A stretch of 64,000 nucleotides of DNA from Fistulifera solaris (lineage: Eukaryota > Bacillariophyta > Bacillariophyceae > Naviculales > Stauroneidaceae). The stretch is taken from positions 312,501 through 376,500 of the forward strand of contig AP026145.1 of NCBI GenBank assembly GCA_030295235.1. Direction: 5' to 3'. Below the pieces are notes generated by a model. That model saw only the letters and a list, made by a program, of their open reading frames with translations. It made no database searches and was not told the DNA's origin. The number at the start of each line of letters is the position of its first letter. The first letter of the stretch is position 1. Made by a program: the position numbers and the translations under genes. Positions 22,216 through 41,680 of the stretch are shown here, piece after piece.

Positions 22216-22626
22216 CTACTTTTTATCCTTGACATCACCTTTTAAGAATGATTCATCCTGCTTCAGAGGTCCACGCAGACCTCGTCTTTTCGCTTCCAAT
22301 TTCCGATACGCTTCTTGCGCCTTCAACGCATCGGAAGGCATGAGGGATTCACCCTGATATTTCCTATACGCAATGTATCCGACACCTCCCAGTAACACAA
22401 CGGCTCCCAGAAAAACAATTCGGTTCTCTGATGTCGAATGGTAGAGGCGTGTTTGTTGACTTTTCATCGATGGCATTGTCATGCAGGTCATATTCACCCG
22501 AGAAAAATGCTCGTGGCGCCTCCTCTCATCGTCTCCCGGAAGTGCCAAATGAGAAACCAGGACTTTTCGATCGGATAACCGAGAAAATCTGAATTTAGCA
22601 TGGCAAATACGAGAAAACCGACTCAT
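22216..22626 (-). CDS. Small single-pass membrane protein, probably mitochondrial
   Basis: 136 residues from the ATG at 22626. The first 60 residues are rich in Arg, Ser and His with almost no acidic residues (MSRFSRICHAKFRFSRLSDR), like a mitochondrial presequence. One membrane helix follows (IVFLGAVVLLGGVGYIAY), then a charged helix (EAYRKLEAKRRGLRG) and a lysine-rich end. I do not recognise a family. It is convergent with the helicase gene (71 bp apart), and its 5' side faces the satellite array. Confidence rests on frame length and a credible targeting plus anchor layout. Confidence 0.6.
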   Translation of the reverse strand: MSRFSRICHAKFRFSRLSDRKVLVSHLALPGDDERRRHEHFSRVNMTCMTMPSMKSQQTRLYHSTSENRIVFLGAVVLLGGVGYIAYRKYQGESLMPSDALKAQEAYRKLEAKRRGLRGPLKQDESFLKGDVKDKK

Positions 22627-22699: not shown

Positions 22700-23790
22700 A
22701 ACGAAGAACGAAGCAAAGTGCACTTTCCAGAAATTCTGGAATCTTGATTTCAGGTCATACAGAAATTCTGTGGTGGTCCAGAAATTCTGGACCAGTTTGT
22801 TCGATCCGACCGACACGCTGCGCTAGTTCCAGAAATTTTGGAAACGCTGTTTCGGATCACAACGAAAGAAAATGCGCGTTCAAGAAATTCTGGAAACGGT
22901 GTTTTGGATCGTAACGAAGCAAAGTGCACTTTCCAGAAATTCTGGAATCTTGATTTCAGGTCATATAGAAATTCTGTGGTGGTCCAGAAATTCTGGACCA
23001 GTTTGTTCGATCCGACCGAAACGGCGCACGTTCCAGAAATTTTGGAAACGCTGTTTCGGATCACAACGAAAGAAAATGCGCGTTCAAGAAATTCTGGAAA
23101 CGGTGTTTTGGATCGTAACGAAGCAAAGTGCACTTTCCAGAAATTCTGGAATATTGATTTCAGGTCATATAGAAATTCTGTGGTGGTCCAGAAATTCTGG
23201 ACCAGTTTGTTCGATCCGACCGAAACGGCGCACGTTCCAGAAATTTTGGAAACGCTGTTTCGGATCACAACGAAAGAAAATGCGCGTTCAAGAAATTCTG
23301 GAAACGGTGTTTTGGATCGTAACGAAGCAAAGTGCACTTTCCAGAAATTCTGGAATATTGATTTCAGGTCATATAGAAATTCTGTGGTGGTCCAGAAATT
23401 CTGGACCAGTTTGTTCGATCCGACCGAAACGCTGCGCACGTTCCAGAAATTTTGGAAACGGTGTTTCGGATCACAACGAAAGAAAATGCGCGTTCAAGAA
23501 ATTCTGGAAACGGTGTTTTGGATCGTAACGAAGCAAAGTGCACTTTCCAGAAATTCTGGAATAATTCTGGACCAATATTTATTTCTTCGATCCGACCGAA
23601 ACCGAAGCGCGAAACGCTGTGCAGAATTCTGCGGACCAGTGCGGACGTTCCAGAATTTTTGAACTAAGACAGAAATTCTGTGGACGTTCCAGATATTCTG
23701 AACTGGTAAGGTTTAGACTAGACTCCTCCAGAAATTTTGGGGACGGTGTGATCGACACAACAGAAATTCTGTCTGTTAAATCGTATTTCC
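22700..23790. repeat. Satellite array A: higher-order repeat of four ~51-bp palindrome monomers
   Basis: Units of 204-206 bp start at about 22707, 22913, 23117, 23321 and 23527. Each unit contains four near-palindromes about 51, 49, 52 and 52 bp apart: TTCCAGAAATTCTGGAA, GGTCCAGAAATTCTGGACC, TTCCAGAAATTTTGGAA and TTCAAGAAATTCTGGAA. Copies 2-4 are almost identical, while the edges (after about 23560) decay into shorter pieces. Because 204 is divisible by three, long open frames appear on both strands; I read them as by-products of the repeat. Confidence 0.95.
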
Positions 23791-23973: not shown

Positions 23974-26390
23974 ATGGCAATGACGACAAACTCGACAGGA
24001 TCGGTAGCCTTGCCGGTGCTCGATGTGAATAGAGAATGCTTGCCTGCCAGCATTGTACAAGAAGAAACTATGCTGATTCGAGAATGCTTTTATTCGCTAC
24101 AAGGTATTAGCGGCGATCGAATACAATTTATCTCCTCGAATGGAGGAAAGGCTACCGTTCATTCGCCGGTGCTAGCACAAGCAGGTTATTCAGCCATCAT
24201 CCCTCCACATCTACGTCCGCAATCCAGGCTCGGAAGTGGAGCCAAGCAAGCCTTATTGATTTGCGCCGAAGCCGGATGGCTTTTGCGCGGATCAAAGAAT
24301 ATGTCGACACCGTAATTCAGCCTTCGAGTCATCAACGCACTCGAACACAACCACAACAACCAGTAGGATCGATCCAGCGTGCCTTGGCGAGTGCTCTTCA
24401 ACTCGAACTTCAATCGTATCAGTGCTTTCTTTCTGAGCTAGAGCCCCAAATATCCAGTTTATCGATACGGCAACTCTTGGTACAAATGCAACCACCCCTC
24501 GTCCGACTCGAACATCTCGCGTCCCTCACGGATGGCGCAGCGCACGCCGCACTGCCTGGTCCGCAAATTTTACATTCCCTCCGCCTGGCCTTGCAGCACG
24601 GTGATTCGCGAAAACGGACGTTGGTGCAGTCGCTGTTGACACGGGCGTGTACTCCGTGGTTTGATATGCTTTATTTGTGGACGACCGAAGGCATCTTGTC
24701 GGATCCAGCGCACGAGTTTTTCGTGGTGGACACCAAGGGCAATGCCGATGATCGGCATTTGTGGAAGGAACAGTATCGACTGGACTTTGATAAGGTTCCT
24801 TTTGGGATATTGGATGAAGATCTCATTCAACCCGCGTTCGTGGTGGGGAAGGCCATCAATTACATTCGAAAGTGTCTGCAAGATGGAGGATGGAGTCTGG
24901 AATTACTCGTTGACGAAGAAGAAACGACAGATGATTCCCATTCGGTCGCGATGGTGGATCAAAATGCTAAAAAAGCTTTGGGATTTGTTTACACACCGAA
25001 CGACGTCGGGTCAGCCAGGGCAACAGTGGCTCCCATTCGTCAGACACTAACACGTGCAGCTACCTTGGTCCATTCGCACATCCTGAAGTCCTTGCATGAA
25101 AAACATTCTCTTTTTCAACATCTGTTTGCATTGAAACAGTTTCTGCTGCTGGGACAAGGTGACTTTTTCGCCACTTTGATGATCGGAATACACAACGAAT
25201 TTGAAGGATTCTCGGGTTTGTCGGGCGTTTACCGTCATACGCTTGCCGCGATCGTCGATTCGGCGCTTCGGAATACCAACGCCACTGGCTTTCCTACCGA
25301 TATTTTGGCTCGTTTACATGTGGAGTTGAATCTGAAGCTAAATGATGATGCTCGTTTTCAATTTGCAGCTCCCAAGGGTGTCGGATCTTTGAAGGACACG
25401 AGGACCGTTTGGGACATTTTCGAATTGGAATACCAAGTCCCGGACCCGTTGTTGGTTATAGTTCATCCGGATGCAATGACTTTGTACAAAACCATGTTTC
25501 ACTTGTTATTTGATATTCGTCGACTAGAATTCATGCTGAATTTGACTTGGCGACAAAGCGCGACGCTTCAGCATTCGTTACAAAAAATGGTGCAGCGAAA
25601 TGGAGTCACGGTGAATAAAAGGTACGACAATTATGTGACACAGCCTTATCTTCATGATTGCCTCTGACGTTTTTGCAGCCCCGAGTATGCACAATGTACC
25701 ATTTTGCTTCGAAAAGTTTCCATGATTCGGCAAGCCATGACCCACTTTGTTACGAATCTGAAAAGTTACTTGATGTTTGAAGTGTTGGAAGGGGAATGGA
25801 AGAAGCTTGTTCGAACAATGCATGTTGCTGAGACTTTGGATGAAGCCATCAAAGCACACGACGACTATCTTGGTGGGATCAATCGAAAAAGCTTCTTACA
25901 TTATGAAGACAAAACAAAGGAAGATACTACACTGGGCAATCAGCTTCGATCCTGTCTGTCTCTAGCTACCGACTTTTGTTCATATCAAGAAGATTTGTTC
26001 AAAGAAGCCATCGAAAAGGCTGAAATTGCGAACTTAAAAAAGAAAGAAGCTGCGTTGCGTCTTGGACAAGGTGACTGGGGTATATCTGACGCTGTTACCG
26101 AGTTGTTGGAGGAGGAGACCATGTTTTTCGGGCTGGCAGACAAATCTAAGATGACCGAACTCGACGAACTTGCTGTGGAGTTCAACGACCATGTCGAGAC
26201 TTTGCTTCGGGCGTTTGACGCTAAATTAAATGGCCGACCGATCTTTTCAAAGAACTCGATTGCAACGCCAGTGACGAGCCCGTCACAGCTGCATTATGAT
26301 CAGGACGGAGACAAAGTTCACGACGATCTCAACTCTTTGCGTTTCTTAGCCTTCCAGCTGAACTGTAATAAATACTATAATGCCTACTAA
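23974..26390 (+). CDS. Gamma-tubulin complex component (GCP3-like)
   Basis: GCP proteins hold gamma-tubulin in the microtubule-nucleating complex. The ATG at 23974 starts a protein of about 787 residues. The N-terminal GRIP1 part has ETMLIRECFYSLQGISGDRI and ICAEAGWLL; the middle has TRACTPWFDMLYLWTTEG and DPAHEFFVV; the GRIP2 part has FALKQFLLLGQGDFF, then IRQAMTHFVTNLKSYLMFEVLE. The end, LRFLAFQLNCNKYY, matches GCP3 better than GCP2. A 57-bp intron lies at 25622-25678 (GTACGA...TTGCAG), joining NKS and PEYAQCTILLRK. One frame break lies at 24289-24290: the sequence needs one more base to read GWLLRRIKEYV. The first intron-free 2.3 kb and credible start suggest a full gene, shorter than animal GCP3. 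Confidence 0.9.
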
Positions 26391-40274: not shown

Positions 40275-41680
40275 AACCAGATTTTCAGAAAAGTCCGGGG
40301 CGGTCCTATAATTCTGGACCTGTTGAATTCCAATAGTACAGAAAATCTGGGGAAGTCCAGAAATTCTGGACCAAGTGAATTTCGTTCATACAGAAAATCT
40401 GGGGTGGTCCAGAAATTCTGGACCAGTTGTATTTCATTCATACAGAAAATCTGGGGCATTCCAGAAATTCTGGACAAGTAGGATTCAATTCATACAGAAA
40501 TTTTTGAACTCTGGACCAGGTGTATTTTATTCTGGAAAAGCTGTATTCATTCATACAGAACATCTGGATTGGTCCAGAAATACTGGACCAGGTGTATTTC
40601 ATATAACAGAAAATCTGGACTTGTCCAGAAATTCTGAAGCAGGTGTATTTCATTCAAACAGAATATCTGGACTAGTCCAGAAATTCTGGAGCAAGTGTAT
40701 TTCATTCATACAGAAAATCTGGGCTGGTCCAGAAATTCTGGACCAGTTGTATTTCATTCATAAAGAAGATCTGGACTGGTCCAGAAATTCTAAACCAGGT
40801 GTATTTCTTTCATACAGAAAATCTGGGCTGGTCCAGAAATTCTAGACCAGTGGGATTTCATTCATACAGAAAATCTGGGGTGGTCCAGAAATTCTGGACC
40901 ATTAGGATTTCATTCATACAGAACATCTGGATTGGTCCAGAAATACTGGACCAAGTGTATTTCATTCATACAGAAGATCTCCAGAAATCCTGAACCAGGT
41001 GTATTTCATTCATACAGAAAACCTGGGCTGGTCCAGAAATTCTGGACCAGTTGTATTTCATTCCTACAGAAGATCTGGGCTGGTCCAGAAATTCTGGACC
41101 ACTTGTGTTTCATTCATACAAAGATCATGGCTGGTCCAGAAAATCTGGCCCACTTGTATTTCATTCGTACAGTACAGAAAATCGGGGGCTGGTACAGAAA
41201 TTCAGGACCAATTGTATTTCATTCAAACAGAAAATCTGGGCTGGTCCAGAAATTCTGGACCAGTTGTTTTTCAATCATACAGAAATTCTGGACCAATTCC
41301 ATTTCTTTCATATAGAAAATGTGGGCTGGTTCAGAAATTCTAGACCAGTGGGATTTCATTCATACAGAAAATTTGGGGTGGTCCAGAAATTCTGGATAGA
41401 TTTGGTGAAGTTCTTTCATACAGAATATCTGGGGCGGTCCAGAAATTCTGGACCATTAGGATTTCATTCATACAGATAATCTGGGGCGGTCCAGAAATTC
41501 TGGACCAGGTGTATTAGATTTTCTGGAAACGTGGAAGCACCACACTCGCAGAGTTTCTGGACAAGTGATTTTCCCACTCACTCACATTTTCTGGAGACGT
41601 GGAAACACCACACTCCCAGTTTTCTGGAAGGGTGAAAACACCACTCGCCCATTTTTTCTGGGGGCGTCAAAGTTCCACAC
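40275..41680. repeat. Satellite array B: ~52-bp palindrome monomers
   Basis: About 24 monomers with a dominant 52-bp period (for example cores at 40357, 40409 and 40461). Each has the palindrome core TCCAGAAATTCTGGA, usually extended to GGTCCAGAAATTCTGGACC, plus a second element ACAGAAAATCTGGG about 26 bp away and a spacer TTTCATTCATA. From about 41515 to 41680 the repeats decay into TTTTCTGGA pieces with GTGGAA(A)CACCACAC spacers. The monomer is clearly homologous to array A. Open frames through the array shift frame each unit and are not judged coding. Confidence 0.95.

What the first reader, a model, noticed from the sequence alone, without database searches (positions are those of the whole stretch)
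22700..23790. Satellite array A is a four-monomer higher-order repeat of near-palindromes at ~51-bp spacing
Each 204-206 bp unit contains four diverged ~51-bp monomers in fixed order, each centred on a 6-9 bp-arm palindrome with a single central base (CCAGAA-A-TTCTGG). The unit as a whole, rather than the monomer, was amplified, which is how centromeric alpha-satellite behaves. Palindromes every 49-52 bp sit about five helical turns apart, so all face the same side of the DNA. That favours cooperative binding by a dimeric protein, or regular hairpin extrusion. I know of no described element of this kind in diatoms.
Basis: partly seen in the sequence, partly recalled or inferred. Interest (0 to 1): 0.82.

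Follow-up and report, generated by a model that had tools for sequence, protein, structure and literature searches.

The report
Palindrome satellite confined to one subgenome
A short tandem-repeat family built of paired mirror-image DNA motifs is scattered between genes of a diatom that carries two parental genomes, and in the parts examined it is abundant in one parental genome and nearly absent from the other, which makes it a natural test of how satellite DNA spreads and what its motifs bind.

Summary
The array is real: window 22707-23563 is a 204-206 bp unit of four diverged 49-52 bp monomers, each centred on CCAGAAATTCTGG or a near variant. It is not a one-off and not centromere-like in what was seen. 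The core TCCAGAAATTCTGGA occurs 2327 times in the 51.7 Mb genome (reversed control 0). A 174 kb stretch holds six short arrays between genes; 90 kb of its homeologue holds none. The four-monomer order recurs in phase at 3 of 3 other loci tested, so the higher-order unit itself was dispersed. The genome is an allodiploid diatom, probably Fistulifera solaris. Of the first 100 of 318 palindrome pairs, 66 lie on C1+C3 and 1 on C2+C4. Palindromes change about half as fast as spacers between loci, and 7 of 11 loci keep a near-perfect partner 20-22 bp away: suggestive, not proof, of a dimeric DNA-binding protein. No common flanking element, no significant promoter preference and no strict helical phasing were found. 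Verdict: a dispersed satellite family, a new variant of a known kind; function open.

The parts
22707..23563 (+). Array A: 4.2 copies of a 204-206 bp unit of four monomers
   Evidence: TRF; sequence; genome-wide relatives
23564..23772 (+). Decayed tail of array A with five further palindrome sites (for example ACAGAAATTCTGT at 23669 and 23760)
22915..23118 (+). One reference unit; palindrome centres at unit offsets 24, 56, 75, 124 and 176
   Evidence: in-phase matches in C15, C17 and C3
40300..41515 (+). Array B: 52-bp monomers with two palindromes each, P1 CCAGAAATTCTGG and P2 ACAGAAAATCTGG, mostly alternating at 19 and 33 bp
41519..41661 (+). 34-bp subfamily at the end of array B (TTTTCTGGAAACGTGGAAACACCACACTCCCAG)
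   Evidence: a similar array at C21:301505-301651
22216..22626 (-). Neighbouring ORF (136 aa) whose start faces array A; a similar stretch is present at C22:301.7k
23974..25667 (+). Neighbouring gene whose start faces array A, seen as two overlapping ORFs (23974-24315 and 24276-25667); start region conserved in C22

Best explanation
This is one locus of a dispersed satellite DNA family. SHOWN: the basic monomer is about 52 bp and typically carries two 13-bp palindromes, P2 then P1, with centres 19-23 bp apart and the next pair about 32 bp on. Four monomers form a 204-218 bp higher-order unit, and this unit, in the same phase, sits at other loci in gaps between genes. On the contig pairs examined the family is abundant in one subgenome of an allodiploid diatom and rare and decayed in the other. 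INFERRED: the family amplified in one parental lineage before the hybridisation. Multi-monomer pieces were inserted at new sites, perhaps as extrachromosomal circles or by break repair, because no carrier element is seen. Each array was then homogenised locally by unequal exchange or conversion. INFERRED, weaker (about 0.35, lowered from 0.4): the palindromes are held by a dimeric, possibly paired, DNA-binding protein, as the CENP-B box is held in otherwise diverging satellites (recalled).
For: 2327 exact 15-mers against 0 for the reversed control; 0.12 expected from base composition. Six arrays in 174 kb of C21; in 90 kb of its homeologue C22 no core with up to 1 mismatch and no cluster at 2. 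Of the first 100 of 318 P2-P1 pairs, 23 on C1, 1 on C2, 43 on C3, 0 on C4 and 33 on the listed part of C5; that is 27 loci on C1+C3 against 1 on C2+C4 (loci grouped by eye). In-phase identity 0.79-0.80 against 0.65-0.68 for rotated units at 3 of 3 loci. Units of array A are 97-100% identical to the reference unit, those of other loci 75-84% over most of the unit in most hits. Palindrome columns 174/194 identical against spacers 321/402 between loci (p = 0.0024), and 942/992 against 835/971 in three B-type arrays. In 11 loci fetched for one exact P2, the core match at +20 averages 6.7 of 11 against 2.8 at other displacements; 7 of 11 have a match of at least 9 at +20 to +22. No element common to the flanks of 26 loci.
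Against: The B-type p-value treats related monomers as independent. Shared ancestry alone can explain the kept 20/32 spacing. Inside the core there is little covariation beyond the consensus (z at most 2.7); only positions 6-8 clearly covary. One B spacer stretch (TATTTCATTCAT) is about as conserved as the palindromes. Only 5 of 11 loci have the partner at exactly +20; 2 have it at +22, one weaker at +21, 3 lack it. Circles are unproven: no clean empty site or target duplication was seen. B-like arrays on C4, C6, C10, C16 soften the subgenome restriction.
Confidence: 0.6

Rival explanations
1. Neutral satellite: the palindromes are only the ancestral sequence of the monomer, and the slower change reflects conversion or slippage bias, not a bound protein.
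For: Arrays are not at homeologous positions: 3 of 3 C21 arrays in the aligned part have no array in C22, and the one C2 array tested has none in the 1 kb read from C1. Little covariation inside the core.
Against: Palindrome columns change less than spacers in both array types; 7 of 11 loci keep a partner at 20-22 bp; a lone P2-P1 pair stands at C1:711.8k.
Confidence: 0.35
2. Cis-regulatory arrays: clustered transcription-factor sites that drive the genes on both sides.
For: Arrays end 74-217 bp from ORF starts at several loci; both window arrays lie between divergent ORFs. 8 of 15 callable loci outside C2 lie between divergent ORFs.
Against: Divergent gaps make 35% of intergenic length, p = 0.11, or 0.18 without one doubtful case; the last five loci fetched held no clear divergent case. 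The C22 homeologues lack the arrays. 5 of the 20 loci outside C2 were not callable; of the 6 C2 loci one is divergent, two tandem, one convergent, two unclear (by eye).
Confidence: 0.12
3. Cargo or remains of a transposable element (Helentron/HINE, MITE or LTR element).
For: Satellite arrays carried by HINEs are known (PMC7492417, passages). One array (C21:301k) lies about 100 bp from a MITE end, and a C4 array match starts 7 bp from a listed MITE end.
Against: Flanks of 26 loci share no common element, only a few pairwise matches; the MITE end is present at 1 of 26 loci; the LTR that carries ACAGAAATTCTGT has it as a single copy.
Confidence: 0.1
4. Centromeric or kinetochore satellite, as alpha satellite.
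For: Higher-order units and a conserved palindromic motif.
Against: Many short arrays along each array-rich contig in the listed places; none in 90 kb of a homeologous chromosome, though that stretch need not hold its centromere.
Confidence: 0.03
5. Coding repeat or structured RNA gene.
For: 218-aa ORF in array A; the unit folds better than 200 shuffles as RNA (z -4.8).
Against: Unit steps of 205 and 206 bp break the frame at other loci; no Rfam match in the window at the gathering scores; palindrome arrays fold well as such, and array B does so with DNA parameters (z -6.4).
Confidence: 0.04

Closest known systems
Dispersed euchromatic satellite arrays (TCAST1 of Tribolium; PMC4537270 abstract and outline; PMC3411249 listing)
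   Same: Short arrays near genes, copies also present as single units
   Different: TCAST1 also fills pericentromeres; here no large block was seen in what was listed, and the monomer is short (about 52 bp) with two palindromes
HINE/Helentron-borne satellite-like arrays of Crassostrea gigas (PMC7492417, passages)
   Same: Many short arrays scattered in a genome
   Different: There each array has conserved left and right flanks with subterminal inverted repeats and a 3' palindrome; here no common flanks
Mollusc satellites with junctions in palindromes (phBglII400; PMC5139131, passages)
   Same: Palindromes inside the monomer, flanks of anonymous DNA
   Different: Junction positions could not be mapped well here
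Alpha satellite with CENP-B box (recalled)
   Same: Higher-order repeat; a short motif more conserved than the rest
   Different: Not concentrated at one site per chromosome in what was seen; monomer 52 not 171 bp; motif unrelated
Subgenome-specific satellites of allopolyploid plants (PMC10809672 and PMC10827815, listings only)
   Same: Satellite content differs between parental genomes
   Different: Here in a microalga and scattered in gene-rich DNA
Baculovirus homologous regions (recalled; works-like only)
   Same: Dispersed short tandem arrays with a central palindrome
   Different: Viral, with enhancer and origin function that is untested here

Membership tests
Satellite/minisatellite DNA | Non-coding tandem repeats, homogenised within arrays | tested here: met
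   TRF; 97-100% within array A, 75-84% to other loci; frame not kept elsewhere
Higher-order repeat | Multi-monomer unit repeated as a whole | tested here: met
   In-phase identity exceeds rotated at 3 of 3 loci
Centromeric alpha-like satellite | Dominant block at one site per chromosome | tested here: not met
   Short arrays spread along contigs in the listed places; the listings were capped, so a large block elsewhere is not excluded
Centromeric alpha-like satellite | CENH3 binding | not testable with these tools
   No ChIP data
HINE/Helentron-borne array | Conserved flanks with subterminal repeats | tested here: not met
   All-against-all flanks of 26 loci
MITE | Terminal inverted repeats and target duplications at the ends | tested here: inconclusive
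   No shared ends seen by eye in 26 loci; homeologous gaps too diverged for clean empty sites
Heat-shock element (HSF site) | nGAAn units at 5-bp steps (GAAnnTTCnnGAA; definition recalled) | tested here: not met
   The palindrome has GAA-n-TTC with one centre base; in 174 kb of C21 GAAnnTTCnnGAA occurs 0 times and its complement 2 times, neither in an array
Subgenome-specific repeat | Present in one parental genome only | tested here: inconclusive
   Strong bias on C1/C2 and C3/C4 and C21/C22, but decayed arrays exist on C2 and B-like arrays on C4, C6, C10, C16

The most novel reading that the evidence does not exclude
The paired palindromes, two dyads about two helical turns apart, are the binding platform of an unknown paired-dimer protein. 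The array network marks the chromosomes of one parental subgenome at about one site per 30 kb and sets their chromatin, replication or expression apart from the other subgenome in the same nucleus.
Probability: 0.12. Interest if true: 0.8.

Novelty: new variant of a known kind. Interest (0 to 1): 0.5.

Why it matters
Satellite spread is usually studied by comparing species. Here two parental genomes, 80-91% alike in aligned blocks of the pair C21/C22, share one nucleus, one dense with the family and the other nearly bare on the pairs examined. This lets one ask directly whether spread is still active, whether it crosses between subgenomes, what the palindromes bind, and whether arrays beside one gene copy but not the other bias expression. 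The arrays would also serve as a marker of subgenome origin. Six literature searches aimed at diatom genomes, diatom repeats or dispersed and subgenome-specific satellites, one on F. solaris subgenomes and one for the core letters listed, by title and start of abstract, no paper describing such a family in a diatom. The listings were capped, subscription journals are mostly not held, and two F. solaris genome papers asked for by recalled identifiers were not held.

Tried and rejected
Seed hypothesis: a single ACAGAAATTCTGT at C22:318016, opposite array B, looked like an ancestral site from which the array grew. It lies in a repeat of about 453 bp that is about 99% identical to four C2 copies standing in two pairs about 6.65 kb apart, so it is most likely a solo LTR; rejected.

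Promoter preference: 8 of 15 callable loci, p = 0.11; not claimed. MITE origin of the arrays: 1 of 26 loci; rejected. Helically phased AA/TT as a general rule: 3 of 17 arrays; rejected. Compensatory change inside the core: little beyond consensus. Spread outside this genome: no match in viral contigs. The prokaryote collection gave 9 loci, 5 of them Tannerellaceae or Tannerella; these look like bacterial arrays with the same palindrome but other spacers and a 41-bp period where measured. A paper on two other diatom genomes gave no occurrence of 'satellite' in its main text (PMC8147415, passages).

Selection effects to bear in mind: the C1 and C2 loci were fetched because they hold an exact palindrome; A-type loci were picked as best BLAST matches to the unit; gene orientation was read by eye from ORFs, 5 of 20 loci outside C2 and the 6 C2 loci were left out of the count, and the subgenome of C34 (one of the 20) was not tested. 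My first conservation count (p = 0.00025) counted missing ends as mismatches; one search corrects it to p = 0.0024. My first partner test used 8 of the 11 loci fetched for an exact P2 and gave 7.9 of 11 at +20; one search uses all 11 and gives 6.7.

Full report
What is there. Array A is as described: a 204-206 bp unit, 4.2 copies, 98% matches, four P1 palindromes 49-52 bp apart and one P2 palindrome 19 bp before the second of them. A second array of the same family, B, lies at 40300-41661; its 52-bp monomer holds both palindromes. In the window there are 94 matches to the 13-mer with up to two mismatches, both strands counted, against a shuffle mean of 1.9.

Where it lives. The window is part of a 51.7 Mb genome with 61 contigs. 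It is a diatom: the silicon transporter family gives 23 matches over its cut-off (silicon transporters as a diatom mark is recalled). Contigs come in homeologous pairs where tested: a window gene matches C22 at 91%, about 80 kb of C21 and C22 align in order in blocks of 80-91% identity, and a C2 flank matches C1 at 94%. This fits the allodiploid Fistulifera solaris (PMC5935921, passages); that name is an inference. In 25 ORF pairs C21 has the higher third-position GC (mean 49.8% against 48.7%; higher in 15 of 25; p = 0.045), close to the values published for the high- and low-GC subgenomes (49.2% and 47.9%).

Distribution. The 15-mer core occurs 1154 and 1173 times on the two strands. In 174 contiguous kb of C21 I find six arrays. 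In 90 kb of C22 there is no core with up to one mismatch, and the five hits with two form no cluster. Of the first 100 of 318 exact P2-P1 pairs, 23 lie on C1, 1 on C2, 43 on C3, 0 on C4 and 33 on the listed part of C5. Of the A-like matches listed (the listing is cut short of the 231 found), those on contigs 1-24 are all on odd numbers (read by eye). Array-B-like matches also occur on C4, C6, C10, C16 and on C26 and other contigs above 24. C2 holds six short decayed arrays among its ten ACAGAAATTCTGT sites; the other four sites are copies of one LTR. To which parent the contigs beyond these pairs belong was not tested.

Anatomy. In 17 of 21 loci a palindrome step of 19-23 bp stands next to one of 29-34 bp. 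Reduced by eye to 42 locus entries, the 100 listed pairs have centre distances of 19 (20 entries), 20 (11), 21 (3), 22 (3) and 23 (5); the pattern allowed 15 to 45. In the 11 loci fetched for one exact P2, the core match at +20 averages 6.7 of 11 against 2.8 over other displacements; 5 of 11 have at least 9 matches at exactly +20 and 2 more at +22. A lone P2-P1 pair stands at C1:711.8k. Four-monomer order is shared: in-phase identity 0.79-0.80 at C15, C17 and C3 against 0.65-0.68 rotated. Unit steps of about 204-218 bp recur at many loci (read). Related arrays with other periods exist: 34 bp and 57 bp (steps).

Constraint. Between loci palindrome columns agree in 174 of 194 cells, spacers in 321 of 402 (p = 0.0024; three loci against one unit); in three B-type arrays 942 of 992 against 835 of 971 (monomers are related, so that p-value is too small). 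In 355 distinct sites symmetry covaries at positions 6-8 from the centre (z about 7) and little inside the core (z at most 2.7). This supports two palindrome types, each symmetric, and is compatible with a dimeric protein; it does not prove one.

Setting. 20 array loci outside C2 were examined for neighbours; 15 were callable, 8 divergent, 6 tandem, 1 convergent. By length 35% of intergenic DNA is divergent; p = 0.11. Flanks of 26 loci share no common element; C1:2125k and C21:226k share an unrelated repeat of about 240 bp, and C1:207k and C3:1136k a 70-bp match. The three C21 arrays within the aligned part have no counterpart in C22, where the gaps are shorter (402 against 191, 1463 against 913, 1607 against 1092 bp including an LTR of about 453 bp). 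The one C2 array tested has no counterpart in the 1 kb read from C1.

Reading. The family amplified and scattered in one parental lineage, is old and decayed in the other, and has not refilled it, on the pairs examined, since the two met. That argues for spread that has stopped, acts in cis, or a young hybrid. Gene-by-gene regulation is not favoured, because the C22 homeologues lack the arrays. The slower change of the palindromes and the often kept partner at 20-22 bp leave a bound protein as the most interesting open possibility.

Noticed in passing
C22:299172-299236, 316538-316601 and others; C21:301385: A tiny MITE of about 80 bp with inverted ends GGGAACGGCGTTAAAATTCTGCCTC...GAGGCAGAATTTTAACGTCCTTCCC; 557 exact matches to its 17-bp end genome-wide (two ends per full element), listed on C1, C2, C3 and C4.
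   Followed up: partly
C2:148.9k/155.5k and 2175.8k/2182.5k; C22:318.0k: A likely LTR element of about 6.65 kb whose repeat of about 453 bp carries ACAGAAATTCTGT some 22 bp from one end; a solo copy sits opposite array B.
   Followed up: partly
L060:2129-2551, L062:304-620, L065:7402-7618: Tannerellaceae MAG contigs hold arrays, 41-bp period by TRF in L060 and L062, of the very same palindrome TCCAGAAATTCTGGA with TCCGGAAATTCCGGA variants; the spacers look unlike the diatom's, so probably convergence.
   Followed up: partly
C1:2124.7k-2125.8k and C21:226.2k-226.5k: A second repeat family, unit about 240 bp, next to palindrome arrays at two loci.
   Followed up: no
C4:500543-501139: A B-like array match on an even contig begins 7 bp from a MITE end; possible later invasion or homeologous exchange.
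   Followed up: no
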